A stretch of 64,000 bases of DNA, taken from positions 1 through 64,000 of the forward strand of contig NZ_BMXI01000016.1 of NCBI RefSeq assembly GCF_014651675.1, written 5' to 3'. The translations under genes and the position numbers were made by a program. This document shows, one piece after another, positions 13,338-29,503 of this stretch. The notes beneath the pieces were generated by a model. The model did no database searches. It was not told where the DNA came from and saw only the letters and a list, made by a program, of their open reading frames with translations. Source of the DNA: Roseibacillus persicicus (lineage in GTDB: Bacteria; Verrucomicrobiota; Verrucomicrobiia; Verrucomicrobiales; Akkermansiaceae). The stretch's first letter is position 1, and every line of letters starts with the position of its first letter.

Positions 13338-13397
13338 GTGGAGTGGACGTCTCGTCTACTCATCGGGTTTGACGGGTGGACGAGACGTCCACCCCAC
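13338..13397. repeat. Intergenic palindrome with 20-bp arms
   Basis: The arms at 13338-13357 and 13378-13397 are inverted copies that match at 18 of 20 positions. They share the core GTGGACGTCTCGTC, and the gap is 20 nt. The high GC and perfect core suggest a REP/BIME-like repeat or a stable RNA hairpin. Only one copy was noticed in the window. Confidence 0.6.
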
Positions 13398-13575: not shown

Positions 13576-15246
13576 TCACTTCCCGCCACCCCAAGAATCA
13601 CGAAGAGCCACCGTGCGATTGAAGACCAGCTTCTCACCCGCCACATACTCCTCGCTATCCGCAACGAAGTAACCCACGCGCTCGAACTGGCAGCGTTCTC
13701 CGGGCTCCATGTCCGCCAAAGCCGCTTCGACCTGCACGCCAGTCACGACCTCCAGCGAGTTCGGATTGAGCACACTCTTGAAGCCATCCTCAGCCGCATC
13801 AGGATTTTCTGCCGTGAACAAGCGGTCATAGAGGCGGACTTCCGCTTCCTGCGCATGCGCCGCGCTGACCCAGTGAATAGCCGCCTTGCAGACAACTCCC
13901 TCCGGAGCATTTTGCCCAATGGTGCCTTCGAGGTATTCGCAATGAACCTCGGTGACCTCCCCGGCCTCGTTCAACTCGTGGCCCACATGCTTGATGATGT
14001 AGCCGCCGCGCAGCCGGACCGCGCCGTCGGGCTTGAGACGGTGATACTTTTTGTGAGGCTCCAGTTCGAAGTCCGCGCGCTCGATCCAGAGCTCGCGCCC
14101 CAGGGCCACATCGCGCTCTCCCGCACTTTCATCCTCCGGATTGTTCGGCACCTTAACCGTCTCGCTCCGATCGGCATCGTAGTTCACGAGCACCACCTTC
14201 AAGGGATCCATCACCACCATGCGACGATTCACTTCCTTGTTCAAAATCTTGCGCGTCTCGAATTCCAACAACGCGATATCAGTGACTCCCACTTGTTTGG
14301 TGATGCCGGTGATCTCGCAGACTTCCCGAATCGCCTGCGCCGGAATCCCCCGACGGCGAGCGCCGCTGATGGTGGGCATGCGCGGATCGTCCCAACCGTC
14401 CACAATCCCCTCGTTCACCAACTCGATGAACTTGCGCTTGCTCATCACGGTGTAGGTAAAGTTGAGGCGCGAGAACTCGATCTGACGTGGCTGGGCAGGT
14501 ACTGGGCAATTCTCCACCACCCAGTTGTAGAGCGGACGATGGTCTTCGAACTCCAGGGTGCAAAGCGAATGGGTGATGTGCTCCTTGGCATCCTCCAAGG
14601 GATGGGCGAAGTCATACATCGGATAGATCTTCCACTTGTCGCCCGTGTTGTGGTGCGGCGCGTTCATCACGCGATAAAGAACAGGGTCCCGCATATTCAT
14701 GTTGGGCGCGGCCATATCGATTTTCGCTCGCAGAACCGCCGTCCCATCGGCGAACTTGCCCTCGCGCATATCGGCAAAGAGAGCGAGATTTTCCTCCACC
14801 GACCGCTCGCGAAAGGGAGAGGGCATGCCCGGCTCGGTCACCGAACCCCGATTGGTGCGCATTTGCTCGAGAGTCTGCTCATCGACATAAGCTTTCCCCT
14901 CTTTGATCAAGTGAACTGCGCAATCATAGAAGAACTCGAAGTAGTCGCTGGCAAAGTAAAGATGCTCGCCCCACTCAAAGCCCAGCCAAGCCACATCGCG
15001 CTTGATGCTTTCCACGTATTCACTCTCCTCTTTGGCCGGGTTGGTATCATCGAAACGGAGATGGCACCGCGCTCCACTCGCCGCATTCTCCTGCGCCAAG
15101 CCGAAGTTGAGACAGATCGCCCGGGCGTGTCCGAGGTGTAAGTAGCCATTCGGCTCCGGAGGAAAACGCGTGATGGTGGTCTCGTGCTTTCCCGAAGCCA
15201 AATCCTCCGCGATGATGTCTCTGATGAAATCCCGTTTCTTGCTCAT
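13576..15246 (-). CDS. glnS: Glutaminyl-tRNA synthetase
   Basis: A 556-residue class I aminoacyl-tRNA synthetase that charges tRNA-Gln. The HIGH-type motif is at residues 37-40 inside PPEPNGYLHLGHAR. The KMSKS-type motif is VMSKR at 267-271. The C-terminal half carries the two anticodon-binding beta-barrels. FPPEPNGYLH and RFDDTNPAKEE are typical of GlnRS rather than GluRS, so the organism makes Gln-tRNA directly. I chose the ATG at 15246 (MSKKRDFIRDII). An in-frame ATG at 15351 would add 35 residues that resemble no synthetase and run into the repeat region. Confidence 0.95.
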   Translation of the reverse strand: MSKKRDFIRDIIAEDLASGKHETTITRFPPEPNGYLHLGHARAICLNFGLAQENAASGARCHLRFDDTNPAKEESEYVESIKRDVAWLGFEWGEHLYFASDYFEFFYDCAVHLIKEGKAYVDEQTLEQMRTNRGSVTEPGMPSPFRERSVEENLALFADMREGKFADGTAVLRAKIDMAAPNMNMRDPVLYRVMNAPHHNTGDKWKIYPMYDFAHPLEDAKEHITHSLCTLEFEDHRPLYNWVVENCPVPAQPRQIEFSRLNFTYTVMSKRKFIELVNEGIVDGWDDPRMPTISGARRRGIPAQAIREVCEITGITKQVGVTDIALLEFETRKILNKEVNRRMVVMDPLKVVLVNYDADRSETVKVPNNPEDESAGERDVALGRELWIERADFELEPHKKYHRLKPDGAVRLRGGYIIKHVGHELNEAGEVTEVHCEYLEGTIGQNAPEGVVCKAAIHWVSAAHAQEAEVRLYDRLFTAENPDAAEDGFKSVLNPNSLEVVTGVQVEAALADMEPGERCQFERVGYFVADSEEYVAGEKLVFNRTVALRDSWGGGK

Positions 15247-15349
15247 TGAAATTGCGGCCCTGTCATCACCTCGACAGCCGAGTTCTGCAACCCCAGAGAG
15301 GACAATGGCGTTCTTTTTCGAAGTTGGGGGCGTTGGGAGCACAATTTTC

Positions 15350-15564
15350 AACCGCAGATTGACGCAGATGAACGCAGATTGGACGGATTGATTCAGGACC
15401 AGGATGGATAGGATAGATAGGATTCAAATTATGATTCTTTTCTTAAAAATGAGAGCAGCAGTCATAAAATCCAATCCATCCAATCTATCTTGGTCCAAAA
15501 AGAACCCAGATCACCTTTAACAGTATCACGTCAAATCTGCGTTCATCTGCGTCAATCTGCGGTT
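15350..15564. repeat. Outer inverted-repeat element, GCAGAT family
   Basis: The arms at 15350-15381 and 15533-15564 are inverted copies that match at 31 of 32 positions. Each arm is built from the unit GCAGAT(T/G)GAC or GCAGATGAAC repeated with a 10-nt period. The left arm is identical over 31 nt to the left arm of the element between nuoG and nuoH (17934-17964), so the two are copies of one family. The interior holds another inverted repeat and no gene. Confidence 0.85.
15396..15496. repeat. Inner inverted-repeat element, GGAT family
   Basis: The arms at 15396-15424 and 15468-15496 are inverted copies that match at 24 of 29 positions. The arm contains GGATGGATAGGATAGATA, a GGAT unit with about a 9-nt period. 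It is nested inside the GCAGAT-family element, so this element probably inserted into the other. Confidence 0.75.
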
Positions 15565-15632
15565 CCTCAAAGAAATCCCCCTTCCACCAAAGAGCCCCCC
15601 CCACCTCTCCCACCCCAATTAGAAACCAAAAA

Positions 15633-15661
15633 AATCCAATCCATCCTATCCATCCTGGTCC
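15633..15661. repeat. Solitary right arm of the GGAT-family repeat
   Basis: This 29-bp stretch, in inverted orientation, matches the inner left arm at 15396-15424 at 27 of 29 positions, better than that arm's nearer partner does. It may be the original partner, with the block between being a later insertion or rearrangement. Confidence 0.65.
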
Positions 15662-15745
15662 AAAAAAACTCCCCCTCCCAAAAATCACCCCAACAGCACA
15701 TTCCACATTGAAAGCCCGTCCATCTTCTCCAGACTCCCGCCGCTG

Positions 15746-16021
15746 ATGATTGCTCGACAGACTATTTTCGAAGGCCGGGTGCAGGGAGTGGGCTTTCGCT
15801 ACACCTGCAAAGAATTGGCAAAAGGCTATGACCTCACCGGCAGCGTGGAAAACCTGCCCGAGGGCACGGTGAAGCTGGTTTTGCAGGGAGAAGAAGAGGA
15901 AATCGAAGAGTATCTTCAGGACCTCAGCGAAGAATCCGCCCTCTCCCACCACATCAAGGGCCAGATGACCACGCCCATCGAGGTCGACGACTCGCTGAAG
16001 GGCTTTGTGATTTCCAAGTAG
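15746..16021 (+). CDS. acyP: Acylphosphatase
   Basis: A 91-residue acylphosphatase that hydrolyses carboxyl-phosphate bonds in small acyl phosphates. The signature GRVQGVGFR spans residues 10-18, with the phosphate-binding Arg at R18. The catalytic Asn is N36 in GSVENLPEGTV. The length is the family's usual one. It lies upstream of nuoG but is separated by a 157-bp promoter-like gap, so it is probably not part of the nuo operon. Confidence 0.95.
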   Translation: MIARQTIFEGRVQGVGFRYTCKELAKGYDLTGSVENLPEGTVKLVLQGEEEEIEEYLQDLSEESALSHHIKGQMTTPIEVDDSLKGFVISK

Positions 16022-16106
16022 CCCCTGCCCACCTTAAGGAGCAGTTTCCCAGTCGGAACCGACCCAAATCTTGCTGCCCAATCCCTTATCGCGCCCTCCT
16101 GAAACC

Positions 16107-16132
16107 GACTTTGTGAAAAATTTCACAAAGTC
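16107..16132. promoter_or_regulatory. Perfect dyad with CRP-type core upstream of nuoG
   Basis: The 26-bp palindrome has 12-bp perfect arms (GACTTTGTGAAA/TTTCACAAAGTC) separated by AA. Its core is TGTGA-N6-TCACA, the arrangement bound by CRP-type regulators. It ends 46 bp before the nuoG start codon. No T-run follows, so a terminator for acyP is less likely than an operator. The binding protein is not known from this window. Confidence 0.6.
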
Positions 16133-16178
16133 CGCTTGCCCCTGATTCGTTGGGTGCTCATAGTCCCGCCGTATTTCG

Positions 16179-17927
<1,749 letters not shown>

Positions 17928-17932
17928 TTACT

Positions 17933-18115
17933 CAACCGCAGATTGACGCAGATGAACGCAGATTCCGAGTTATTGAGACAGACGATGAAAAGTCTTTTCC
18001 ATTGCTCCCAATTCAGTCACAGCGCACCCAGCGTCATCCACTTTCCTTTTCCTTCACTGATTCAACAAATCACACCAAACCAAAATCTGCGCAAATCTGC
18101 GTTCATCTGCGGTTA
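17933..18115. repeat. Gene-free GCAGAT-family element in the nuoG-nuoH gap
   Basis: The arms at 17933-17965 and 18083-18115 are inverted copies with 7 mismatches in 33. The left arm shares 31 identical nt with the element at 15350. Each arm repeats GCAGAT with a 10-nt period. The 117-bp interior has no convincing open frame. The element starts 6 nt after the nuoG stop and ends 16 nt before the nuoH start, filling the intercistronic gap. Confidence 0.85.
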
Positions 18116-18131
18116 AAAACTCTCTCCAATC

Positions 18132-19460
18132 ATGGAACTCGACCTCGCTTTTCTCATCGCCACCGTCATCAAGATGGGGCTCTACTTCACGATCGTGCTG
18201 ACCTTCGTGGCCTACGCCGTTTACGCTGAGCGCCGCTTTTCAGCCATCATTCAGGACCGGGTGGGACCGAACCGGACCATGATTCCGACTTCGATTCTGG
18301 GTTTCAAAAACGACATCAAGCTTCCCCTCGGCGGACTGACCCAGCCCATCGCGGACGGACTCAAGTTCATTCTGAAAGAGGACTTCACCCCCGCGCACGT
18401 CCGGAAGCACTTCTTCTGGTTGGCACCCTGCATGACGATGGTTCCGTCCCTCATCACCATCGCGGTCATCCCCTTTTCCAGCCCAATCGCAATCGAAGGA
18501 CGCGACGTTCCTCTTTCCATGGCTATCGCCGACCTCAATGTCGGCCCCCTCTTCATCTTTGCCATCTCCTCTCTCGCCGTCTACGGTATCGCGATTGCGG
18601 GTTGGGCCTCCAACTCGAAGTTCCCCTTCCTCGGCGGCATTCGTGCTTCCGCCCAAATGATTTCCTACGAAATCGCCCTTGGTCTCTCCATCATCCCCGT
18701 TTTACTGGTCTTCGGCGAACTCAACTTGGGTCGCATTGTGCAGGAGCAATCAGTCAATGGCTGGCTGATTCTTCCCCTCTGGAACGAGGGCGGACACATC
18801 CTGAGCGGTGGTTTCTGGGATGCGGGTGGCTTGCAGCAGTGGATCCTCTGGCTCCCCATGATGCTGGCCTTCATCATCTTCACCATTTCCATCTTCGCGG
18901 AAACCAACCGCACTCCCTTCGACTTGGCCGAATGTGAAACCGAGCTCGTGGGTGGTTATCACACCGAATACTCTTCCATGAAGTTCGCCCTCTTCTTCCT
19001 GGGTGAATACGCCGCAATGGTCATCGGCTCCGCTCTCATCGTGACCATGTTCCTGGGTGGCTGGTCCTTGCCTTTCGGTTGGTCCAATGCCGAATGGTTG
19101 GCTTCCGGCGGCATCATTGCGACCTTCATCCACCTCGGCTGCTTCCTTACCAAGGTCATCGGCTTCATCCTCTTCTTCATCCTCGTGCGCTGGTCCATCC
19201 CGCGTTTCCGCTACGACCAGTTGATGAAGCTCGGTTGGGTCATCTTCTTCGAGCTCGCCCTCATCAACATCGTCCTCACCGCGCTCATCATCGCCAAACC
19301 TGCCCTCGATAAAGAAGGCCCTATCGCTTTCTGGGCCGCTCTCGCTGCTCTCGCCGCCTTCTCGGCCTTCGTCTTCTACCTCGCCAAAACGATCGACAAC
19401 CAAGTCGGCCCCGGCAAGCGCGTCGCGCCCGTCAAAGCCAAGCCCGCCCCCGTCAACTAG
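18132..19460 (+). CDS. nuoH: NADH-quinone oxidoreductase subunit H
   Basis: A 442-residue membrane subunit of complex I at the junction with the peripheral arm, helping to form the quinone site. The family signature ERRFSAIIQDRVGPNR is at about residues 33-48, and FAETNRTPFDLAECETELV supplies the conserved acidic loop at about 255-275. Roughly eight to nine hydrophobic helices are visible. A Lys/Pro-rich tail follows the last helix. nuoI begins 34 bp later. Confidence 0.95.
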   Translation: MELDLAFLIATVIKMGLYFTIVLTFVAYAVYAERRFSAIIQDRVGPNRTMIPTSILGFKNDIKLPLGGLTQPIADGLKFILKEDFTPAHVRKHFFWLAPCMTMVPSLITIAVIPFSSPIAIEGRDVPLSMAIADLNVGPLFIFAISSLAVYGIAIAGWASNSKFPFLGGIRASAQMISYEIALGLSIIPVLLVFGELNLGRIVQEQSVNGWLILPLWNEGGHILSGGFWDAGGLQQWILWLPMMLAFIIFTISIFAETNRTPFDLAECETELVGGYHTEYSSMKFALFFLGEYAAMVIGSALIVTMFLGGWSLPFGWSNAEWLASGGIIATFIHLGCFLTKVIGFILFFILVRWSIPRFRYDQLMKLGWVIFFELALINIVLTALIIAKPALDKEGPIAFWAALAALAAFSAFVFYLAKTIDNQVGPGKRVAPVKAKPAPVN

Positions 19461-19494
19461 GACCGTCCTTTCCAATTTCTAGCCCATTCCTTCC

Positions 19495-20061
19495 ATGCCC
19501 GTCGTCAAACTCCAACGCCCCACCCTCACCACCAGCGAAAAGCTGACGTTGCCTTCGATCTTCAAAGGCTTCCTCGTCACTTTGGGACACGCTTTCAAAT
19601 CTCTGGCCGGAAAATCCCGGGGCGCGGACTCGCTGAACGGTTCCGGGCTCGGGGTCACCATGCAGTATCCCGAGCAGAAGTGGGATGGCGAGCTCCCCGA
19701 ATACTATCGCGGAGCCCCCGCCCTCGTCACCGACGAGCAGGACCGCGAACGTTGTGTCTCCTGCCAACTCTGCGAATTCATTTGCCCGCCCAAAGCGATC
19801 AAGATCGTTCCCGGCGAAATCCCCTCCGATGACGAGTGGGCCAAGGTCGAGAAACGACCCAAGGCCTTCGACATCGACATGATCCGCTGCATCTACTGCG
19901 GCATGTGCGAGGAAGTCTGCCCCGAGCAAGCCATCTACCTCCGCAAGGACTACGCCATCACCGGTCTCAGCCGGGCCGAAATGGTGCACGACAAGGAGAA
20001 ACTCTACGAAATCGGCGGCAAGCGAGTCGGGCTGGTGAATAAGTGGAACGAATTGAAATAG
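19495..20061 (+). CDS. nuoI: NADH-quinone oxidoreductase subunit I
   Basis: A 188-residue TYKY-type subunit that carries two 4Fe-4S clusters and passes electrons toward quinone. The two ferredoxin motifs use C87, C90, C93 and C97, and C132, C135, C138 and C142, with the usual Pro after the last Cys of each. An N-terminal amphipathic region (FKGFLVTLGHAFKSL) contacts the membrane. The gene is followed by a repeat-bounded cassette before nuoJ. Confidence 0.95.
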   Translation: MPVVKLQRPTLTTSEKLTLPSIFKGFLVTLGHAFKSLAGKSRGADSLNGSGLGVTMQYPEQKWDGELPEYYRGAPALVTDEQDRERCVSCQLCEFICPPKAIKIVPGEIPSDDEWAKVEKRPKAFDIDMIRCIYCGMCEEVCPEQAIYLRKDYAITGLSRAEMVHDKEKLYEIGGKRVGLVNKWNELK

Positions 20062-20071
20062 TTGCGGAGCA

Positions 20072-20541
20072 GAGATTGGGACATTGAGAAAATTTGGATA
20101 ATTGGGTTATGGCATTGGATACAAAAACATTCGAGGAGTTGGAGGCTTGGAAAGCAGGCCGCAAACTTCGTGTGTTTGTATTTCGCCAAGTAGTCCCCTC
20201 CCTAATCTCTCAGAAAGAGTTTAGTCTGGCCGACCAGATCAAGCGCGCCTCCCGCTCCGTCACTGCGAATATTGCGGAGGGACATGGACGCTACCATTAC
20301 CGCGATAATTACAAATTTTGCTCCAACGCACGAGGTTCTCTCACCGAAACCCTTGACCACCTGATCGTTTGCGAAGACGACGAGCTCATTGCCCCATCAA
20401 TCATCTCTGAAGCACGCACCCTTTTTGAAACCGCATTGAAAATTCTCAACGGATATATGTCTTGGCTGGAACGTAGCGCCAAGATTGCGAACGCAAAGCC
20501 CCGGCCCTAAATATCCCAATTTTCCAATCTCCCAATTTCTC
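20072..20541. mobile_element. Inverted-repeat cassette carrying a four-helix bundle gene (nuoI-nuoJ gap)
   Basis: An imperfect inverted repeat bounds the cassette: left arm about 20072-20106, right arm 20515-20541. Both are built from ATTGG-type units, with about an 8-nt period in the right arm. The arms align only with several gaps, so the boundaries are approximate. The cassette starts 10 nt after the nuoI stop and ends 9 nt before the nuoJ start. The single cargo gene points the same way as the operon. Confidence 0.7.
20109..20510 (+). CDS. Four-helix bundle protein (S23/IVP type)
   Basis: A 133-residue protein of the four-helix bundle family first known from 23S rRNA intervening sequences and related to Avd of diversity-generating retroelements. 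The conserved ANIAEGHGR stretch is at 53-61 and ARGSLTE at 74-80, with a fourth helix ending at about 122. The ATG at 20109 is used; a TTG at 20094 would add five residues that fall in the left repeat arm. Family function is poorly known, with nucleic acid binding proposed. It interrupts the nuo operon, and nothing links it to complex I. Confidence 0.88.
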   Translation: MALDTKTFEELEAWKAGRKLRVFVFRQVVPSLISQKEFSLADQIKRASRSVTANIAEGHGRYHYRDNYKFCSNARGSLTETLDHLIVCEDDELIAPSIISEARTLFETALKILNGYMSWLERSAKIANAKPRP

Positions 20542-20550
20542 ATACCCACC

Positions 20551-21234
20551 ATGCCTCAAGTTCTCTTCTACCTCTTCTCCGTCCTCGCGGTCTTGTCAGC
20601 GTGTCTGATGGTGATTGTGAAAAATCCCGTCTCAAGCGCCCTCTGGATGGTGGGTGCGTTCGTCGGAATGGCCGCCCTTTTTGTAGGACTCAATGCCTAC
20701 TTCGTCGGGATCATCCAGATTCTGGTCTACGCCGGTGCCATCATGGTGCTCTTCGTGTTCATCATCATGCTCCTCGACCTCAAGGCCGAAGAAAAGCGGG
20801 TCTGGAAGCCAGCCAACATCGCGGCCGGCGCAGTGGTTCCGACCATTTTGCTCCTGCAAATTCTGGGAGTCCTGCTCAAGTCCGATTTTGAGCCTTTCCA
20901 AGAGCTCGACCTCAAAACCGCCGCCACCGCCCACCAACAAGCTTCCCTGGACCTCTATCAAGAGAAAGCCAAGAAAGCAGGCGAAGAATTCGACCCAGCC
21001 GATGTCCCGGTCGGAAAGATTCAGGCCAACCTCGAAGACAACCAGCTCCCTGATGTTCACTTGGTCGGTCGCACCGTTTTCGCCGGTCGTGCCGACAAGG
21101 CCGCGAGCCAATCCTTCGGTTTCGATGACACCAGCAACAACCTCCCTCTTCAAGTGATGGGCGTTCTGCTGGTAGTCGCCACCATTGGAGTGGTCGTTCT
21201 TTCCAAAAAAGGCAGCCCTGCCAAGAGCAACTGA
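20551..21234 (+). CDS. nuoJ: NADH-quinone oxidoreductase subunit J
   Basis: A 227-residue proton-channel-region subunit of complex I. Four helices are visible in the first 110 residues (including IIQILVYAGAIMVLFVFIIM, the family's pi-bulge helix), and a fifth follows at about 195-215. Between them is a hydrophilic segment of about 80 residues, longer than in many NuoJ proteins. The ATG at 20551 follows the cassette's right arm; an in-frame ATG at 20485 lies inside the cassette gene and would add an unrelated leader. nuoK starts 36 bp later. Confidence 0.93.
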   Translation: MPQVLFYLFSVLAVLSACLMVIVKNPVSSALWMVGAFVGMAALFVGLNAYFVGIIQILVYAGAIMVLFVFIIMLLDLKAEEKRVWKPANIAAGAVVPTILLLQILGVLLKSDFEPFQELDLKTAATAHQQASLDLYQEKAKKAGEEFDPADVPVGKIQANLEDNQLPDVHLVGRTVFAGRADKAASQSFGFDDTSNNLPLQVMGVLLVVATIGVVVLSKKGSPAKSN

Positions 21235-21270
21235 TATCCGGCAACCCGAAACCTCAACTCTTCTCACCCG

Positions 21271-21600
21271 ATGAACCCCGTCTCACTTAGCGAATATCTC
21301 ATGGTCAGTGGCATCCTCTTTGCCATCGGGCTGGCTGGCGTCATCGTGCGCCGCAACATCATTGTCATCTTCATGTGCCTGGAGATGATGCTCGCCGCCG
21401 CCAACCTGACCCTCGTCGCCTTTTCCCGTCACAATCTCAGCACCTTCGACGGACTTCCCGACTACAACGGCCAAGTGCTCGTCTTCTTCATCATCACCGT
21501 AGCCGCTGCCGAAGTAGCCGTCGGCCTCGCCATCATCGTCGCCCTCTATCGGGCCCGTCAGACGGTGAATGTGGATGATTTGACTTCGATGCGCGGGTGA
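21271..21600 (+). CDS. nuoK: NADH-quinone oxidoreductase subunit K
   Basis: A 109-residue subunit with three transmembrane helices, homologous to MrpC. The conserved glutamates lie in helix 2 ([18 protein letters not shown]) and helix 3 ([14 protein letters not shown]). Its TGA stop abuts the left arm of the next cassette. Confidence 0.95.
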
Positions 21601-22079
21601 TTTTTTGGACAGAATTAACAGGATTTTACAGGATTAGCTTTGAATTTGAACCCGTCAGAAATGGAGCAGCTCACTGGTAAGGTGATTGGCTGTGCTATGG
21701 CTGTTCATCGCGAGCTTGGTCCGGGATTTCTTGAGTCCGTTTATCAGAAGGCTCTCTCCATCGAACTGAACCATCAGAGGGTCCCCCACGCGGTTGAAGC
21801 CCCACTCGCGGTGCATTATCGCTCCCAACTGGTGGGTGAGTTCAAAGCCGACATCCTCGTTCAAGAATGCCTCATCCTCGAACTTAAGGCCGTCACCAAA
21901 CTTATCGATAAGCACGAAGTTCAGACCGTCAATTATCTCACCGCAACTGGGATCAATGTCGGCCTCCTCTTCAATTTCGGCTCTCAGCGCCTTGAATTTA
22001 AGAAAAAGTTCCGAATCTACCGGCCTACCAATTCCACCGAGTCCAATCCTGCTTAATCCTGTCAATCCTGTCCAAAAAA
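21601..22079. mobile_element. Inverted-repeat cassette carrying a GxxExxY gene (nuoK-nuoL gap)
   Basis: The arms at 21601-21635 and 22045-22079 are inverted copies that match at 30 of 35 positions. Both ends begin with six T or end with six A. Each arm contains three copies of (A/G)CAGGATT-like units spaced 9-10 nt apart. The left arm begins at the first base after the nuoK stop, and the right arm ends 7 nt before the nuoL ATG. The cargo gene's stop codon lies inside the right arm, showing the gene and the repeat form one unit. Confidence 0.85.
21661..22056 (+). CDS. GxxExxY protein, PD-(D/E)XK nuclease fold
   Basis: A 131-residue member of the GxxExxY family (PDDEXK_3). The name-giving motif is G22-F-L-E25-S-V-Y28. 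Nuclease-fold residues are D64, E74 and K76 (FKADIL ... LILELKAV), followed by a Q-x3-Y motif (QTVNY, 88-92). The family is predicted to bind or cut nucleic acid, but the biochemical role is not established. The ATG at 21661 gives the family N-terminus; an in-frame TTG at 21640 would add seven residues. The gene lies within a repeat-bounded cassette between nuoK and nuoL and is unrelated to complex I. Confidence 0.9.
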   Translation: MEQLTGKVIGCAMAVHRELGPGFLESVYQKALSIELNHQRVPHAVEAPLAVHYRSQLVGEFKADILVQECLILELKAVTKLIDKHEVQTVNYLTATGINVGLLFNFGSQRLEFKKKFRIYRPTNSTESNPA

Positions 22080-22086
22080 TTTCCCA

Positions 22087-23901
22087 ATGCACGCCTGGCT
22101 TCTCCTCCTCCTTCCGCTTCTCAGTGCGGCCGCGATTCATCTCGGTCTCAAAAAGAACGCCCACCTTTCCGCACTGATCTCCACGGGTTCAGCTCTGGCG
22201 ACCTTGATTCTGACCATTCTCCTTCTGGGGAACGACATCAAGGAACCGCTTCAGTTTGCTTGGGCCAGTTTCGGAGGTGAACCTCTCATCAACATCGGTC
22301 TCGTGGTCGATAAAATGGCGATCAACATGATGCTGGTGGTCACCGGAGTGGGCACTCTGGTCCATGTATTCTCGCTGGCCTACATGGCAAGCGACGAGGC
22401 CAAAGCACGCTACTTCTGCGGGCTCTCGCTCTTCATGTTCTCCATGACCGGCATCGTCTTGGCGGACAACTTCCTGATGATGTTCATTTTCTGGGAGCTG
22501 GTGGGTCTGTCTTCCTACCTTCTGATTGGACACTGGTTCACCAAGGCATCGGCGGCCGATGCCGCGAAGAAAGCCTTTTGCGTCAATCGCATCGGTGACT
22601 GGGGCTTCATGGTCGGAATCCTTATGCTCTGGGCCATCACTGGCACGCTGACTTTCGGCGAGATGAACCTACCCGAAGGCCTCACCGCAGGCATCTTGGG
22701 AGCGACTTTGCTTTGCATCTTCTGTGGTGCGGTCGGCAAGTCCGCGCAAGCGCCCCTCCACGTCTGGTTGCCAGACGCGATGGAAGGCCCGACCCCCGTT
22801 TCCGCGCTCATCCACGCCGCCACCATGGTAGCGGCCGGGGTCTACATGATGGCCCGCGTGTTCGTCTCGGTCGGCTTCGAAGCCTTCCCCCAGTGGTCGA
22901 CCGACACCATCGCCTGGGTTGGTGGCATCACTTCCCTGATGGCGGCCCTGATGGCCACTCAACAGAACGACATCAAAAAGATTCTCGCCTACTCCACCCT
23001 TTCGCAGCTCGGCTACATGGTTCTCATGCTGGGAGTAGCTCATGGGCACTCGACGGAAATCTCGATGTTCCACCTCTACACCCACGCATGGTTCAAGGCT
23101 CTCCTCTTCCTCGGATCCGGTGCCATCATCTATGCCTGCCACCACGAGCAGAATATTTGGAAAATGGGTGGTCTCTTCAAGAAGATGCCCATCACCGCCA
23201 TCACCTTCGCGGTCGGCACCTTGGCTTTGGCAGGCTTTCCGATGACTTCGGGCTTCTTCTCCAAAGAGCAGATTCTTCACGAGACCCTCCACAGCAACAT
23301 CTACCTCTTTGTGCTCGTCGCCGTGGTCGCCGCGATGACCACTTTCTACATGGGCCGCCTTTTCATCGTGGTCTTCCTTGGGGAAAACCGCTCCAAGCAT
23401 TCCAAGGATGCTGCTGAGGTCAAACCCATCATGCTTCTGCCGCTGGTACTTCTCGCAGTGATGGCGGTCTTCTCCGGCTACAAGTTTGTCGCTGAACCTC
23501 TTGCTCCGCAGTTTCACCACGTTCCATTCGAAGCCAAAACGCCCTTCTTCACCTCTATCGGAGCCATTTTGCTCGGAGCTGCCGGAGCCTTCGTCTTTTA
23601 CTTCAACAAGAAGAGCGACCCTCTGTCCAACAACCCCGTCTCCAAGGCTTTCGCCAATCGTCTCTATATCGACAAAGGCTACGACCAGTTGGTCAAATAC
23701 GGCATCAATGTGAAAGCGGCCGTCATCGACTTCCTCGACGGATTCATCATCAACGGCCTCATCGTCGGCGGACTCGCCCGCTGTTCGGCGGCCTTGGGAC
23801 AACTTTTCAACCGCGCACAATCGGGTTCCCTGCAGACCTACTCCCTGCTGATGGGGGTGGGAGTCCTTCTGGTCATCTACCTCACTGTCTTTGTCAAATA
23901 G
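22087..23901 (+). CDS. nuoL: NADH-quinone oxidoreductase subunit L
   Basis: A 604-residue antiporter-like subunit at the distal end of the complex I membrane arm. The helix motif FWELVGLSSYLLIGHW near residue 140 carries the key Glu. LHVWLPDAMEGPTPVSALIH at about 227-246 carries the conserved quinone-family signature. Lys-containing broken helices follow. A C-terminal amphipathic and transmembrane part (about 480-604) corresponds to the lateral helix. The start is the ATG just after the cassette's right arm. Confidence 0.95.
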   Translation: MHAWLLLLLPLLSAAAIHLGLKKNAHLSALISTGSALATLILTILLLGNDIKEPLQFAWASFGGEPLINIGLVVDKMAINMMLVVTGVGTLVHVFSLAYMASDEAKARYFCGLSLFMFSMTGIVLADNFLMMFIFWELVGLSSYLLIGHWFTKASAADAAKKAFCVNRIGDWGFMVGILMLWAITGTLTFGEMNLPEGLTAGILGATLLCIFCGAVGKSAQAPLHVWLPDAMEGPTPVSALIHAATMVAAGVYMMARVFVSVGFEAFPQWSTDTIAWVGGITSLMAALMATQQNDIKKILAYSTLSQLGYMVLMLGVAHGHSTEISMFHLYTHAWFKALLFLGSGAIIYACHHEQNIWKMGGLFKKMPITAITFAVGTLALAGFPMTSGFFSKEQILHETLHSNIYLFVLVAVVAAMTTFYMGRLFIVVFLGENRSKHSKDAAEVKPIMLLPLVLLAVMAVFSGYKFVAEPLAPQFHHVPFEAKTPFFTSIGAILLGAAGAFVFYFNKKSDPLSNNPVSKAFANRLYIDKGYDQLVKYGINVKAAVIDFLDGFIINGLIVGGLARCSAALGQLFNRAQSGSLQTYSLLMGVGVLLVIYLTVFVK

Positions 23902-23944
23902 ACGAAACCCGTTTTCCCAACTTTCCCATTTCATCTGAACCGTC

Positions 23945-25459
23945 ATGATTGACCAAACACTCATCCTTCTCCTCGCCATTCCACTGGTTGCCCTTGTGGC
24001 CATCATTGCTGGTGGGCCCGCTCGCAACATCGCCCTGATGGCGTCTGTCGGCAACTTTGGCATCGCCTTGGTCACCTCCATTGTCTGGACCCAAGTGGCG
24101 GCTCCGGAACAGTTGGGAGCCTTCGAACTGATCGTATTGGCCAAGCCCCAGATTACCCTCGCCCTCGGTCTCCCCGATGCCATGGCGGTTATCATGATGC
24201 TGCTGACCACTCTGGTGCCCATTGCCGCCGTTCTCGCGGGCAAATGCCCCGAAGGCCGCGAGCGCCTTTGGTTCTCGTCAGTCTTGCTCATCTCACTCGG
24301 CGCTCTGGGTGCCTTTCTCTCCACCGACCTCTTCTTCTTCTACGCTTTCCACGAGCTAGCGTTGATTCCGACCTTCCTGATGATCGGAATGTTGGGCAAA
24401 GGCGACCGCAAGGCTGCGGCTTGGAAAATCACGATCTACCTCGCCTTCGGTTCCATCGTGCTTCTCGCCGGTTTGCTCTGGCTGGTTGCGGCGACTGAAT
24501 CCCCCTCCCTTCTCTTCAAGGATATCCTCGCCGGCCAGGTGGACAGCGGAGACCAAATCGGCATCGCAGCTCTCCTCCTCGTGGGCTTCGGCGTCTTGGT
24601 TTCGCTCTTTCCCTTTCACTCTTGGGCCGCTCCAGCCTACGCCTCGGCGCCCACTCCGGTTGCGATGCTGCATGCGGGGGTTTTGAAAAAGTTCGGCCTC
24701 TACGGACTGCTCCGTCTCTTTCCCCTTGTGCCGGAAGGTATGCAGCACTGGCTCGTCGCTCTCGTCGTGCTGCTGCTTGGTAATATTCTTTGGGTCGGCA
24801 TGGTGACCATCAACCAGAAGCGCCTCGACAGCATGCTCGCCAACTCCTCGGTGATGCACATGGGCTACGTGTTCCTCGCCATCGCCGCGCTCATCGCAGC
24901 GGGCTCGACCGACGCCAACAACATCGCCCTGCCTGCGGCTGTGGTCCTGATGTTCGGTCACGGAGTGTCCATCGCCCTCCTTTTCGCCCTCTCCGATCGC
25001 ATCGAAAGCAAAACCGGCAGCCTCCGCATGGAGGAGCTCGGTGGCTTGGCCAAGTCCGCACCCGGTCTAGCCTTCCTCTTCGGGCTCGCTGGAATGGCGT
25101 CCATCGGTCTCCCCGGCCTCGCCAACTTTGCCGGTGAAGCAGCGGTCTTCCTCTCCGGGTTTAAAAACTGGGATGCTGGTCAGCCACTTGGCGCCGTCCA
25201 GATTGCCACCATCATCGCCATCTTCGGGGTGGTCATCTCCGCCATCTACATGCTGCGTGCAGTGCGAAACATCTTCCACGCCGCCCCGGTCAAGCTCACC
25301 GAGTCCGCCGAGGACCTGAATATGAGCGAGAAGATTCCCGCCCTCATCCTCGCCGCCGCGCTGCTGGTGGTCGGGCTCTACCCCAACATCCTTTTCAACC
25401 TCTTCAACCCCACGGCTGAAGCTGTCGAGCCCGAAGTCTCCCTTGTCGAGGCCCCGTAA
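23945..25459 (+). CDS. nuoM: NADH-quinone oxidoreductase subunit M
   Basis: A 504-residue antiporter-like subunit of complex I with about 14 hydrophobic helices. The conserved Glu is in FHELALIPTFLMIG at about residue 138. The central FPFHSWAAPAYASAPTPVAM region at about 223-242 is the family signature. It lies 43 bp after nuoL and 24 bp before nuoN, so the three are one transcript. Confidence 0.95.
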   Translation: MIDQTLILLLAIPLVALVAIIAGGPARNIALMASVGNFGIALVTSIVWTQVAAPEQLGAFELIVLAKPQITLALGLPDAMAVIMMLLTTLVPIAAVLAGKCPEGRERLWFSSVLLISLGALGAFLSTDLFFFYAFHELALIPTFLMIGMLGKGDRKAAAWKITIYLAFGSIVLLAGLLWLVAATESPSLLFKDILAGQVDSGDQIGIAALLLVGFGVLVSLFPFHSWAAPAYASAPTPVAMLHAGVLKKFGLYGLLRLFPLVPEGMQHWLVALVVLLLGNILWVGMVTINQKRLDSMLANSSVMHMGYVFLAIAALIAAGSTDANNIALPAAVVLMFGHGVSIALLFALSDRIESKTGSLRMEELGGLAKSAPGLAFLFGLAGMASIGLPGLANFAGEAAVFLSGFKNWDAGQPLGAVQIATIIAIFGVVISAIYMLRAVRNIFHAAPVKLTESAEDLNMSEKIPALILAAALLVVGLYPNILFNLFNPTAEAVEPEVSLVEAP

Positions 25460-25483
25460 CTCATCCGAACGATTCTCACATCC

Positions 25484-26965
25484 ATGCATCTTCCTCTTCA
25501 CTATCTCGAAGTCATCGTCGTCGCACTCGGGCTTATCGTCCTGCTGGCTGAGGCTTTCTTTCCTCGCGAAAAAAAGGCCATCCTCGGCTGGTTTGCCGTC
25601 GCCGGTCTCGTGGCGACTTTTGTTCTGCTCATCTTCGCCAATCGCGACATCTCAGGCCCCGAGCTCGACCGCTTCTACGCCACTGATGACCAGGCCATCT
25701 TCTTCAAGGGATTTGCCCTCATCATCACCGCCCTGATGCTTCTGATGGCGATTGATTATCGCAAGGTTCTCACCCGCTTCACCGAAGACCCCTCCTCCGA
25801 GGACGGCACTGGTGAGTTCTACGCCCTGCCCCTCTTTGCCTGCGCCGGCATGATGTGGATGGCTTCCGCCAAAGACCTCGTCATGGCCTTCGTCGCGCTC
25901 GAGCTGACCACCATCACGTTCTACGTTCTGGTTGCCTACATGCGCCGCAATGTCGGTTCACTGGAAGCGGGCGTGAAGTATCTCATTCTCGGTGCGCTTT
26001 CCACCGGATTCCTGGTCTACGGAATCGCTTGGATTTACGGCATCACTGGCACCATGAGCCTGGAGGCCATCAATCTGGTCCTCAGCCCCGAAGCCCTCTC
26101 GACTAACAATATCGCGCAGAACACCACCGCCCTGCTCTTCGGCATCGCCCTCATCGTGGTAGCCCTCGCCTTCAAGGTTGGCGCGGTTCCCATGCACCTG
26201 TGGATTCCCGACGTTTACCAAGGCGCTCCCACCCCCACCACCACCTTCCTTTCCGTCGGCTCCAAGGCCGCCGGTTTCATTGTCGCCATGCGCATTCTCG
26301 AGCCTTTCCTGACTCACGAAATCACCCGCGACAAGACCATCTTCATCCTCACCATCCTCGCCGCCGCAACCATTTTGGTCGGCAGCTTGGCCGCGATTGC
26401 ACAGACCAACCTGAAGCGTCTCCTCGCTTACTCCTCGGTCGCCAATGCGGGCTTCATCCTTCTCGCGGTGGCCGCTTGGAAAGGCTCTAGCGAGACAGAC
26501 CTCTCCTCCTTCCAGGTGGTTGGTTTCTACCTCGCCACCTACCTCATTATGACCGTTGCGGCCCTCTTCGCCCTGCAGTCCATCAGCCAAAGCACCGGTA
26601 GCGAAAGCATCGCTTCGCTCCGCGGCCTTGCCCAGACCCACCCTTCCCTCGCTTGGACCCTCACCATCATCTTCTCCGCATTGGCCGGCTTGCCACTGAC
26701 AGTGGGATTCGTGGGTAAGTTCTTTGTCTTCCGCGCTGCCGTTTACTCCGACCTTTGGTTGGCTGTTGGATGCGGATTCGTGGGAGCCGCAGCAGGCTTC
26801 TACTTCTATTTCAAAGTGATTCGCGAGATGTTCTGGAGCCCCTCCGAGCACGGTCCGGAAATCTACCTTTCCAGCACCGCCAAAGCCGTCATCTACCCGG
26901 CCGCGATCCTCATCATCTTCCTCGGTCTCTACCCCCAGCCGATCTTGGCGCTGCTTGGGAAGTAG
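25484..26965 (+). CDS. nuoN: NADH-quinone oxidoreductase subunit N
   Basis: A 493-residue antiporter-like subunit, last of the nuo genes. The Glu-bearing helix is MAFVALELTTITFYVLVAYM at about residues 129-148. FKVGAVPMHLWIPDVYQGAP at about 229-248 is the NuoN signature. About 14 hydrophobic helices are visible. A stem-loop follows the stop codon by 24 bp. Confidence 0.95.
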   Translation: MHLPLHYLEVIVVALGLIVLLAEAFFPREKKAILGWFAVAGLVATFVLLIFANRDISGPELDRFYATDDQAIFFKGFALIITALMLLMAIDYRKVLTRFTEDPSSEDGTGEFYALPLFACAGMMWMASAKDLVMAFVALELTTITFYVLVAYMRRNVGSLEAGVKYLILGALSTGFLVYGIAWIYGITGTMSLEAINLVLSPEALSTNNIAQNTTALLFGIALIVVALAFKVGAVPMHLWIPDVYQGAPTPTTTFLSVGSKAAGFIVAMRILEPFLTHEITRDKTIFILTILAAATILVGSLAAIAQTNLKRLLAYSSVANAGFILLAVAAWKGSSETDLSSFQVVGFYLATYLIMTVAALFALQSISQSTGSESIASLRGLAQTHPSLAWTLTIIFSALAGLPLTVGFVGKFFVFRAAVYSDLWLAVGCGFVGAAAGFYFYFKVIREMFWSPSEHGPEIYLSSTAKAVIYPAAILIIFLGLYPQPILALLGK

Positions 26966-26989
26966 ACCGTCCCAACCACTCGCGACGCT

Positions 26990-27013
26990 TCGCCCCCGTT
27001 GATGTGGGGGCGA
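26990..27013 (+). terminator. Stem-loop after the nuo operon
   Basis: The stem TCGCCCCC/GGGGGCGA is 8 bp with an 8-nt loop. Outer flanks CCACTC (26976-26981) and GAGTGG (27020-27025) can also pair. No T-run follows, so it could be a Rho-dependent end or an mRNA 3' stabiliser rather than a simple intrinsic terminator. Confidence 0.45.
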
Positions 27014-27072
27014 GATCATGAGTGGACCTTCTATGGCCTTGTCAGAAATGACGAGATACAGAAGATGGGCCG

Positions 27073-28503
27073 ATGATAGCGGCTCTTCGAACTCTGTTTT
27101 TTCTCGGGCTTGCCATTCCCGTTCTCTCTAAGCCCAATATCCTCCTCATCTCGATTGATGATCTGAACGATTGGGTTGGCTGCCTGCAGGGTCACCCACA
27201 GGCGCGAACTCCCAATATCGACCGATTGGCGAAAAGCGGAACCCTTTTTGCCAACGCCCATTGCCAGGCCCCCGTCTGCAATCCATCGCGAGCCAGCTTG
27301 ATGACGGGACGGTATCCGCACTCTTCAGGGGTCTACTTCCTGGCTCCCGATCTCAAAAAAGCCCCCGCCCTCAGAGACCTCCCGACTCTTCCGGAAGTCT
27401 TTGCCAAAGAAGGCTATCGCACCCTCGCAGCGGGCAAACTCTTTCATGGCCATGACCAGCGCTACTTCCAAGAGTATGGAGGCAACATGGGCGGCTTCGG
27501 TCCTCGTCCGGCCAAGAAGCTGTCCCAACCCCACGGACACCCGCTTTGGGACTGGGGTGCCTTTCCGGAGAAAGACGAGGAAATGCCAGATGAAAAGGTC
27601 GCCGACTGGGCGATAGAGCAACTGGGAAAGGAGCATGAAACGCCGTTTCTGATGGGTGTCGGTTTTTGGCGCCCTCACGTTCCGATGTATGCACCGCAAA
27701 AATGGTTCGACCTTTTTCCCCGCGAACAAATCCAATTACCCAAAGTGAGGGAGAACGATCTGGCTGACATCTCTCCCTATGCCCGGGACCTGACGACGCT
27801 CAATCACGTCGCGCCCACCCACAGTTGGATGACCACAGCCGGTCAGTGGAAACACGCGGTGCAAGCCTATCTCGCCTCCATCGCCTTCGCGGATCATCAA
27901 GTTGGCCGGGTTCTCGACGCGCTGGAGGCCTCCCCCCACCGCGACAACACCATCGTCGTTCTGTTCTCCGATCACGGCTTCCATCTCGGAGAAAAAGAAC
28001 GGTGGGCCAAACGCAGTCTTTGGGAAGATGGGACGCGGATTCCTCTCATCATCTCCGCACCCGGGTATCAGGGAGACAAAGTTTCCGCCCGACCTGCCGA
28101 GCTTCTCGACATCTTTCCCACCTTGCTCGAACTGGCCTCCCTCCCCGCGGATCCAAAGCAAGAGGGCCAGTCCCTGGTGCCCTTGCTCGAGGATCCCCAA
28201 GCGGCTTGGCAACATCCCGCGCTCACCTCCTTCGGGCCCGGGAACATCGCCATTCGCACCGAAAGAATGCGCTACATCCGATACGCGGATGGTTCCGAAG
28301 AACTCTACGACCATCGCACCGATCCCGACGAGCATTTCAACCTCCTTCATCAGTCTCCGGTTAGTCCCTCTGATAGGAAACTGGCCGATGAACTGGCATC
28401 CCACCTCCCTGAACGCGAAGCTCCTTTGCTCCCAGGAAAATCAACTGGTCACGAGGCCTTTCGAGCCGCGAATGATGCCCGAAAGCTGCCCACCGGGGAC
28501 TGA
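27073..28503 (+). CDS. Secreted sulfatase, iduronate-2-sulfatase-like
   Basis: A 476-residue exported sulfatase with a signal peptide at about 1-19. The formylglycine motif is C69-N-P-S-R73, inside QAPVCNPSRASLMTGR. Metal-binding D29-D30 lie in LISIDDLNDWVGCLQGHPQA. The CNPSR variant, LNDWVG and VGFWRPHVPMYAPQKWFD are features of iduronate-2-sulfatase-like enzymes. FSDHGFHLGEKERW supplies the remaining metal ligands. It probably removes sulfate from an acidic polysaccharide; the actual substrate is not known. It is the second formylglycine sulfatase in the window. Confidence 0.93.
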   Translation: MIAALRTLFFLGLAIPVLSKPNILLISIDDLNDWVGCLQGHPQARTPNIDRLAKSGTLFANAHCQAPVCNPSRASLMTGRYPHSSGVYFLAPDLKKAPALRDLPTLPEVFAKEGYRTLAAGKLFHGHDQRYFQEYGGNMGGFGPRPAKKLSQPHGHPLWDWGAFPEKDEEMPDEKVADWAIEQLGKEHETPFLMGVGFWRPHVPMYAPQKWFDLFPREQIQLPKVRENDLADISPYARDLTTLNHVAPTHSWMTTAGQWKHAVQAYLASIAFADHQVGRVLDALEASPHRDNTIVVLFSDHGFHLGEKERWAKRSLWEDGTRIPLIISAPGYQGDKVSARPAELLDIFPTLLELASLPADPKQEGQSLVPLLEDPQAAWQHPALTSFGPGNIAIRTERMRYIRYADGSEELYDHRTDPDEHFNLLHQSPVSPSDRKLADELASHLPEREAPLLPGKSTGHEAFRAANDARKLPTGD

Positions 28504-28571
28504 GCGCGAAGCCGAGCAAAAATCTTCGCAAAATTGGGAAACTCGGCTACGATGATTTCGTAGTTAAAACG

Positions 28572-29267: not shown

Positions 29268-29311
29268 CCCCCAATGGGGCTCAATTAGCGAGAAAGCCTC
29301 TTCTTCTCTTT

Positions 29312-29347
29312 ATCCTCACAAGCCTTTTGGTTTGTGAGGATTTTTTT
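29312..29347 (+). terminator. Intrinsic terminator after the BI-1 gene
   Basis: A perfect 10-bp stem (ATCCTCACAA/TTGTGAGGAT) with a 10-nt loop is followed by seven T. This is a textbook Rho-independent terminator. Confidence 0.9.
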
Positions 29348-29503
29348 GATCTCTCGAAAAGCGTTCCAAGGCGTATTTGCAACTTCCTGTCAAAAAATCA
29401 CCTTTCCGGTTGTTTGGCCTTTCAGGTGCTTTACTCTTTTGGCTTGGTGGCTCTTCTTGGGAAAAGAGAAGATTCCTAGCTCGCGCCACCCCAATCTCCC
29501 GAA

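What the first reader, a model, noticed from the sequence alone, without database searches (positions are those of the whole stretch)
15350..22079. A series of inverted-repeat cassettes placed in three gaps of the nuo operon and just before it
Four elements occupy intercistronic gaps: 15350-15564, 17933-18115, 20072-20541 and 21601-22079. Each is bounded by inverted arms made of a short unit repeated every 8-10 nt, and each uses a different unit: GCAGAT, ATTGG, (A/G)CAGGATT and GGAT. The cassettes begin within about 10 nt of a stop codon and end close to the next start. Two carry one gene in the operon's direction, and two carry none. Different repeat families share one architecture and one insertion niche, which suggests a general system of small, operon-tolerated mobile units. 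I know of no single description that unites them.
Basis: partly seen in the sequence, partly recalled or inferred. Interest (0 to 1): 0.78.

Follow-up and report, generated by a model that had tools for sequence, protein, structure and literature searches.

The report
Gene cassettes with inverted repeat arrays
Four small inserts in and beside a respiratory-enzyme operon belong to a widespread class of apparently mobile bacterial elements, in which one small gene (or none) lies between two mirror-image arrays of a short DNA word, and the spacing of the word depends on which of two gene families the element carries.

Summary
The inserts are real; such arms rarely flank other genes (3 of 413 control ORFs). 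Two carry one gene each: a PF05635 "23S rRNA IVP" four-helix protein and a PF13366 "GxxExxY" nuclease. Two carry none and share one CGCAGAT unit; one has a GGAT element nested inside. Same-genus G003 has short, insert-free nuo gaps. The gene family goes with the unit spacing (lags 5-12 compared): IVP arms repeat every 7 nt (32 of 39 in this order; 43 of 48 in other records), GxxExxY arms every 8-11 nt (35 of 36; 21 of 22). For GxxExxY, arm sequence follows protein sequence even between phyla. Inter-arm mismatches show no G.U excess, against selection for a sense-RNA hairpin. nuo regions hold 22 gene-bearing elements where 0.74 are expected. Best reading: DNA elements whose own protein recognises the terminal arrays, geneless copies being derivatives, kept in the operon's direction. 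Binding, cutting and movement are inferred; no insertion junction was resolved. The window's own IVP element breaks the 7-nt rule (best lag 8).

The parts
15350..15385 (.). left arm, CGCAGAT unit every 10 nt (geneless element 1)
   Evidence: pairs with 15529-15564, 97% complementary
15396..15424 (.). left arm of a GGAT element nested inside geneless element 1
   Evidence: pairs with 15633-15661; the closer partner inside the loop is seen in repeat family D10 and in the fold
15466..15501 (.). right arm of the nested GGAT element (approximate ends)
   Evidence: direct-repeat family D10; fold
15529..15564 (.). right arm of geneless element 1
15633..15661 (.). solitary GGAT right arm outside the element
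17934..17964 (.). left arm of geneless element 2 in the nuoG|nuoH gap, 6 nt after the nuoG stop
18084..18114 (.). right arm of geneless element 2, 17 nt before nuoH
   Evidence: a genome search with the whole element matched other places only in the arms and a few inner bases
20071..20106 (.). left arm (ATTGG-type) of the IVP element in the nuoI|nuoJ gap
   Evidence: best lag 8, an exception to the 7-nt rule
20094..20510 (+). four-helix-bundle gene (PF05635, TIGR02436); ORF listed from TTG 20094, likelier start ATG 20109
   Evidence: the start is my reading
20506..20540 (.). right arm of the IVP element
21600..21635 (.). left arm (ACAGRATT unit) of the GxxExxY element in the nuoK|nuoL gap
21640..22056 (+). 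GxxExxY PD-(D/E)XK nuclease gene (PF13366, TIGR04256); likelier start ATG at 21661
   Evidence: structure model pLDDT 93.9; the start is my reading
22045..22080 (.). right arm of the GxxExxY element, 6 nt before nuoL
16179..26965 (+). host operon nuoG-nuoN that holds the inserts (16179 G, 18132 H, 19495 I, 20554 J, 21271 K, 22087 L, 23945 M, 25484 N)
   Evidence: G, H-L by best NCBIfam matches, M and N by the Proton_antipo_M domain and gene order

Best explanation
Each cassette is a small mobile or once-mobile DNA element: two inverted terminal arrays of a short unit enclosing one gene (about 480-515 nt overall) or a gene-free loop (about 145-215 nt overall in this genome). The gene product recognises its own arrays. 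The IVP protein, whose solved relatives are deposited with five chains, reads [A/C]AG once every 7 nt. The GxxExxY protein, a Cas4/lambda-exonuclease-like PD-(D/E)XK nuclease, reads a C-R-C-N-R-A-like unit every 8-11 nt. Geneless copies are non-autonomous derivatives that keep the arrays. New copies arise often near old ones and survive mainly in gaps between co-transcribed genes, in the direction of transcription, where they are expressed by read-through and harm little. Shown: architecture, family-specific spacing, arm-protein co-variation, dispersed and tandem copies, insert-free alleles, orientation bias, nuo hotspot. Inferred: direct binding, nuclease action at the ends, the copying step, and whether the IVP needs a helper enzyme.
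For: Genes. Of the 8 gene-bearing elements of the genome, 7 have inverted arms above the 95th percentile of mismatched pairs; L002 (score 22) only equals it, though its units show by eye. Controls: 3 of 413 ORFs reach 32, against 39 of 60 IVP and 36 of 51 GxxExxY elements of the order. Spacing (lags 5-12 compared, so 8-11 would be hit by chance about half the time and 7 one time in eight): IVP best lag 7 in 32 of 39, GxxExxY 8-11 in 35 of 36; on loci not used before, IVP 43 of 48, or 31 of 36 without Verrucomicrobia, GxxExxY 21 of 22 with none at 7. Without choosing arms, lag-7 excess in the 70 nt after the stop is +0.116 and +0.149 for IVP and -0.003 for 413 controls. Core: between arms the G of AG differs in 4.6%, positions 3-4 in 22-28%. 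Arms follow protein: Mantel r 0.40 IVP, 0.48 GxxExxY, 0 of 2000 permutations each; across phyla GxxExxY r 0.43, 0 of 2000. Dispersed copies; D. alkanivorans, 27 of 33 matches within 18 kb. Insert-free alleles. Orientation (+,+) against (-,-): 35 v 5, 18 v 0, 32 v 2, 22 v 3. Nuclease motif and fold. IVP relatives in PDB.
Against: No clean target site or target-site duplication was resolved. Geneless CGCAGAT copies share up to 31/31 arm bases but nearly unrelated loops, which simple recent transposition does not give. Many sites look inherited (metK|ahcY clade). The window's own IVP element and L004 have best lag 8. Not every gene has detectable arms: 9 of 60 IVP and 4 of 51 GxxExxY of the order, 22 of 78 named IVP and 17 of 44 GxxExxY rows of other records do not pass their own 95th percentile. 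For IVP the cross-phylum arm-protein correlation is weak (r 0.14, 16 of 2000). The threshold-free lag-9 excess of GxxExxY (+0.048, +0.031) is only modestly above controls (+0.019). The contrast of core and linker was measured with the phase set on AG in one arm; other anchors give smaller contrasts. Permutation tests ignore shared ancestry. Protein searches matched only 13 (IVP) and 8 (GxxExxY) of 72,556 plasmid records and no phage record for GxxExxY.
Confidence: 0.6

Rival explanations
1. RNA-level element: the arms pair in the transcript, RNase III cuts the insert out of the mRNA as it does the 23S rRNA intervening sequences, and the hairpin is what selection maintains.
For: All four window inserts fold better than shuffles (z -7.2, -16.5, -2.8, -3.9). 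The 23S IVS of Coxiella has a 28-bp stem, an S23p gene and RNase III excision (PMC4990558 passages). Gene direction follows the operon.
Against: Between arms, G.U-type differences are not in excess of A.C-type: IVP 76 v 103, GxxExxY 59 v 82; selection on the sense hairpin predicts the opposite. Mismatches pile up in linker positions while the core is kept.
Confidence: 0.15
2. The arms are mobilised in trans by a host enzyme (Y1 HUH/RAYT-type transposase or a reverse transcriptase), and the IVP or GxxExxY gene is a passenger or accessory, as Avd is in diversity-generating retroelements.
For: All 16 genomes searched have Y1_Tnp matches, 5 to 25 each; 12 of 16 have an RVT_1 match. PF05635 resembles Avd (PMC10053308 passage).
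Against: The gene between the arms goes with unit spacing and, for GxxExxY, unit sequence. Four genomes with IVP matches (G009, G016, G040, G055) have no RVT_1 match, though presence does not show activity.
Confidence: 0.12
3. Domesticated regulatory cassettes: the protein binds the unit array in the mRNA and sets translation of the neighbouring genes, as was proposed (with other binding proteins) for TAACTGA heptamers.
For: Recurrent sites lie between subunits or partners (nuo, nrdB|nrdA, gyrB|gyrA, cysD|cysN, metK|ahcY), some apparently kept by descent. PMC4679880 proposes translational regulation by heptamers (abstract).
Against: Insert-free relatives with the same operon; arm units differ between nuoI|nuoJ IVPs of one clade; geneless and tandem copies; no shared host function.
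Confidence: 0.1
4. Chance low-complexity sequence or annotation artefact.
For: Unit arrays are locally repetitive.
Against: Controls.
Confidence: 0.01

Closest known systems
23S rRNA intervening sequence (IVS) with S23p/IVP gene (Leptospira, Coxiella)
   Same: PF05635-type gene between inverted repeats; Coxiella IVS has tandem heptamers GACAGAT just before the ORF (PMC4990558 passages), as the 7-nt rule predicts
   Different: here in gaps between protein genes, not in rRNA; a second gene family (GxxExxY) and geneless forms share the architecture
TAACTGA heptamer repeats of Beggiatoaceae, Cyanobacteria and Bacteroidetes (MacGregor 2015, PMC4679880: abstract, passages and section 12 seen) and cyanobacterial STRR sequences (one passage of PMC2670836 seen)
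   Same: 7-nt direct repeats in intergenic gaps, in one genome mostly just before a start codon; some relatives have shorter gaps without them; the reverse complement TCAGTTA fits the [A/C]AG heptad; a hairpin-forming STRR is noted between hupS and hupL
   Different: in what I read they are described without an encoded protein partner or a regular inverted second array; the link to IVP elements is my inference and was not tested in those genomes, apart from one Nostoc plasmid IVP with GAGTCAG heptads (L246)
MITEs / REP-REPIN elements with RAYT
   Same: small, dispersed, inverted, intergenic, non-autonomous forms
   Different: the gene inside is PF05635 or PF13366, not a transposase; ends are unit arrays with a characteristic period
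Cas4 / lambda exonuclease-type PD-(D/E)XK nucleases
   Same: D..ExK..QxxxY residues; best solved match 4ic1 SSO0001, Z 10.4; that 4ic1 is a Cas4 is recalled
   Different: a minimal domain of about 115 residues; conserved GxxExxY; encoded between inverted arrays
Avd of diversity-generating retroelements
   Same: related four-helix fold per PMC10053308 passage
   Different: reverse transcriptase and template/variable repeats are not part of these cassettes; their presence nearby was not searched systematically

Membership tests
23S rRNA intervening sequence (IVS) | lies inside a 23S rRNA gene | tested here: not met
23S rRNA intervening sequence (IVS) | PF05635 gene between inverted repeats | tested here: met
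   20071-20540, (for one of the four inserts)
23S rRNA intervening sequence (IVS) | RNase III excision from the transcript | not testable with these tools
   needs RNA work; stable folds only
MITE of a DNA transposon | terminal inverted repeats in several genomic copies | tested here: met
MITE of a DNA transposon | target-site duplication | tested here: inconclusive
   the nearest insert-free allele (G003) is too diverged in the gaps to place the junction
MITE of a DNA transposon | parent encodes a transposase | tested here: not met
   the gene-bearing forms encode PF05635 or PF13366
REP/REPIN with RAYT | short palindrome with a Y1 transposase flanked by it | tested here: inconclusive
   Y1_Tnp is present in 16 of 16 genomes; whether any copy is flanked by these units was not examined
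PD-(D/E)XK nuclease (RecB/Cas4-like) | D, E-x-K and QxxxY active-site residues | tested here: met
   D64, K76, Q88, Y92 invariant and E74 nearly so in 18 sequences; the motif itself is recalled
PD-(D/E)XK nuclease (RecB/Cas4-like) | restriction-endonuclease-like fold | tested here: met
   model pLDDT 93.9; 4ic1 Z 10.4, rmsd 3.4, 101 aligned
Cas4 proper | four-cysteine iron-sulfur cluster | tested here: not met
   no cysteine among invariant or nearly invariant columns; that Cas4 has it is recalled
Diversity-generating retroelement | reverse transcriptase with template and variable repeats beside Avd | not tested
   only genome-wide RVT_1 presence was searched, not neighbourhood or repeats

The most novel reading that the evidence does not exclude
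A categorically new class of bacterial mobile elements without a transposase, defined by terminal inverted unit arrays and a cognate array-reading protein of one of two unrelated folds. The spacing (7 nt for the pentameric IVP, 8-11 nt for the GxxExxY nuclease) and the unit sequence form a protein-DNA code. The 23S rRNA intervening sequences, and probably the long-unexplained heptamer (STRR, TAACTGA) repeats, are members or remnants of it.
Probability: 0.35. Interest if true: 0.92.

Novelty: new variant of a known kind. Interest (0 to 1): 0.8.

Why it matters
PF05635 and PF13366 proteins are common (one capped scan gave 547 relatives of the IVP alone) and have no established role that I know of; rRNA intervening sequences and heptamer repeats are long-standing puzzles (recalled). 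A simple measurable rule, that the gene family goes with the unit spacing and the protein clade with the unit, ties these together and makes them testable: one can predict which protein binds which repeat. It also shows core operons, nuo above all, as reservoirs of small elements that annotation shows as lone small genes.

Tried and rejected
Considered and rejected: chance repeats; known defence genes (0 PADLOC matches for the two window proteins); a known RNA family (0 Rfam matches at 14000-30000); phage carriage of the GxxExxY gene (0 of 50,697 phage records; the IVP was not searched in phages). RNA-hairpin selection was my first mechanism; the G.U test went against it. I expected geneless copies to share loops as MITEs do; in this genome they hardly do, though in D. 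alkanivorans they do. A unit count near five per IVP arm (median 4.8, IQR 4-5.9), which would match a five-subunit ring, is only suggestive because arms were chosen by score.

Ten searches of the open-access PMC library listed no paper uniting these elements; some listings were capped (20 of 374 papers, 20 of 36, 8 of 9, 8 of 79), and subscription journals and bioRxiv were not searched.

Rows dropped or doubtful: one search reduced 122 hits to 111 by identical DNA; 2 of 80 named loci had too little flank; 4 (L168, L169, L170, L206) were repeats of the first set, still counted and dropped; one locus had short flanks and two of the 44 rows are pieces of one broken gene (L267). One of the 39 genomes is a Lentisphaerae, close to Verrucomicrobiota. 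Periodicity was scored only on arms with score 32 or more and 20 nt or longer; one search repeats it without that choice. The nuo hotspot odds treat elements as independent, which shared descent violates; the 22 was counted by hand, includes one truncated IVP (G033), 12 of 53 nuo loci were judged only by coordinates (the PF05635 list was cut at its weak end), and some fetched loci are incomplete (for example G002 ends after nuoH). Trees are quick ones with many open forks.
Full report
WHAT IS THERE. The window (G000:C16:1-64000 of a 5.28-Mb genome) holds nuoG to nuoN. Four inserts are confirmed. 20071-20540 (nuoI|nuoJ) carries a PF05635/TIGR02436 four-helix-bundle gene, called IVP here; 21600-22080 (nuoK|nuoL) carries a PF13366/TIGR04256 GxxExxY gene. 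17934-18114 (nuoG|nuoH) and 15350-15564 (upstream of acyP, outside the operon) carry no gene and share the same CGCAGAT arms; the latter has a GGAT element nested in its loop, and a further GGAT right arm stands alone at 15633-15661.

SAME ARCHITECTURE GENOME-WIDE. The genome has four IVP genes and four GxxExxY genes. Each lies between inverted arms with its own unit: CAAGAC, GACAGG/CCACCTG, ATTGGG, a 43-48-nt A-rich arm, CGCAGAG, ACAGRATT, CGCAGATTAA, CGCAAAA (read by eye). By score, seven of the eight exceed the 95th percentile of mismatched pairs and L002 equals it. The CGCAGAT double unit occurs 28 times (up to one mismatch) against 0 for the reversed pattern: one inverted pair surrounds a GxxExxY gene (C5:299265-299755, next to aspS/hisS-like genes) and five pairs are geneless. 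Another GxxExxY element of this genome lies between nuoD- and nuoE-type genes (L008).

RELATIVES AND INSERT-FREE SITES. Among 58 genomes (own included), 53 have NuoH, 42 PF13366 and 45 PF05635. I read 40 nuo loci plus the window. Same-genus G003 (NuoH 81% identical) has no inserts: gaps of 33, 22, 63, -4, 47 and 42 nt from G|H to L|M. Of 34 loci in which both nuoI and nuoJ were found, 7 have an IVP in that gap (one truncated), 22 have a gap of 75 nt or less, and 5 have something else. Same-genus G001 holds geneless ACAGAATT-type elements in H|I and I|J and a GxxExxY gene with the same arm type in K|L; G022 shows the same pairing (by eye). Twenty-two gene-bearing elements (14 IVP, one of them truncated, and 8 GxxExxY) lie in nuo regions of 53 genomes, where 0.74 are expected for 13-kb windows from 270 family matches in 250 Mb; shared descent makes the odds overstated. 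Other recurrent sites, with flanks named by Pfam for one representative each: metK|ahcY, nrdB|nrdA, gyrB|gyrA, cysD|cysN, two parts of a methionine synthase, hisS|aspS.

THE SPACING RULE. Of 111 distinct elements of the order (60 IVP, 51 GxxExxY), 51 of 60 and 47 of 51 have inverted arms above the 95th percentile of mismatched pairs. In arms scoring 32 or more, IVP arms repeat at lag 7 (excess identity +0.29, again +0.27 at 14; best lag 7 in 32 of 39) and GxxExxY arms at 8-11 (35 of 36). Lags 5-12 were compared, so chance would put about one arm in eight at 7 and half at 8-11. I then looked at loci not used to find the rule. IVP in 80 named loci of many phyla: 78 usable, 56 above the 95th percentile; without the four repeats of the first set 48 are scored and 43 have best lag 7; without Verrucomicrobia 31 of 36. 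GxxExxY in 39 genomes reached through named loci plus two plasmid records: 44 rows, 27 above the 95th percentile, 22 scored, best lag 8-11 in 21 and none at 7. Without any choice of arms, the 70 nt after the stop show lag-7 excess +0.116 and +0.149 for IVP and -0.003 for 413 control ORFs; for GxxExxY lag 9 is +0.048 and +0.031 against +0.019 in controls, a modest difference. The window's own IVP element is an exception, best lag 8, as is L004.

WHAT THE ARMS ENCODE. In IVP upstream arms, AG is conserved over three heptads in 34 of 51 named and 19 of 39 verrucomicrobial arms (GT in 18 and 20), CT in 3 of each, AG in shuffles about 1. With the phase set on AG, the two arms differ at the G in 4.6%, at the A in 8.5%, at positions 3 and 4 in 22-28% and elsewhere in 9-17% (79 elements). 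Units are as alike between the arms of one element (0.784) as within an arm (0.767), against 0.500 between elements (52 elements), so an element's units evolve together. Arm similarity follows protein similarity (Mantel r 0.40 IVP, 0.48 GxxExxY; 0 of 2000 permutations; for pairs at different sites 0.27 and 0.46), and across phyla for GxxExxY (r 0.43, 0 of 2000) but only weakly for IVP (r 0.14, 16 of 2000). The permutations ignore shared ancestry.

DNA OR RNA. The inserts fold well as RNA. But differences between arms that would keep a G.U pair in the sense transcript are not commoner than those that make an A.C mismatch: 76 v 103 for IVP, 59 v 82 for GxxExxY. The arms are therefore probably not kept by sense-RNA pairing, and DNA-level recognition is favoured. 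RNase III may still cut the transcript.

HOW IT SPREADS. In Desulfosarcina alkanivorans a 152-nt geneless unit has 33 matches, 27 of them on one strand within 18 kb (1378491-1396322), partly in tandem at about 163-166 nt, in a region with four GxxExxY genes and one IVP gene. In three genomes further ACAGRATT arms lie in the same nuo operon as the gene-bearing element: a geneless pair in G022 and, by the strict pattern, single arms in G043 and G053. Both suggest local spread. In gaps between genes of one direction the element gene follows them: (+,+) against (-,-) is 35 v 5, 18 v 0, 32 v 2 and 22 v 3 in four sets, consistent with selection for read-through expression or low harm.

PROTEINS. GxxExxY: D64, K76, Q88 and Y92 invariant and E74 nearly so in 18 sequences; model pLDDT 93.9; best solved match 4ic1 SSO0001, Z 10.4, with restriction-type, Holliday-resolvase-type and lambda-exonuclease-type folds below it. 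IVP: solved relatives 2gsc and 2rld, five chains each; S23p of Xanthomonas campestris is called a toroidal homopentamer in PMC4990558 (passage). A ring reading one AG per subunit, like TRAP on RNA (recalled), is an attractive but untested picture. All 16 genomes checked have Y1 transposase genes and 12 of 16 a reverse transcriptase match, so a helper in trans cannot be excluded.

KNOWN OR NEW. The nearest described things are the 23S rRNA IVS elements, whose Coxiella form has tandem heptamers before the S23p gene, and heptamer repeats in Beggiatoaceae, cyanobacteria and Bacteroidetes, with some relatives lacking them. Ten searches of the open-access library listed no paper that joins these, the GxxExxY elements or the operon niche (listings capped). 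I call it a new variant of a known kind, with a real chance that it is a new kind.

Noticed in passing
15396-15501 and 15633-15661: A GGAT-unit element is nested inside the loop of the CGCAGAT element, and an extra GGAT right arm stands alone about 130 nt further on.
   Followed up: partly
L024 (G000:C6:237128 region): A GTTGTCA-type heptad repeated four times lies beside a CGCAGAT right arm: IVP-type and GxxExxY-type units close together without a gene of either family (seen by eye).
   Followed up: no
L086 7844-8696 (G034 nuoI|nuoJ gap): The same gap is filled by what looks like a two-gene insert without unit arms; its first gene resembles a nucleotidyltransferase by eye.
   Followed up: no
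L066 8755-9102 (G001 nuoK|nuoL gap): A small membrane-protein-like ORF sits between nuoK and the GxxExxY element.
   Followed up: no
L081 7855-8126 (G033 nuoI|nuoJ gap): An IVP gene with an internal deletion: a decaying element.
   Followed up: partly
L249 (Sphingomonas parapaucimobilis plasmid record): A GxxExxY gene between fabD and fabG: the core-operon niche in another phylum.
   Followed up: partly
16 genomes: Y1 (HUH) transposase family matches number 5 to 25 in every genome searched, a possible helper or an independent REP/RAYT system.
   Followed up: no
13338-13397: A 19-nt inverted repeat with a 22-nt loop, unrelated to the unit arrays.
   Followed up: no
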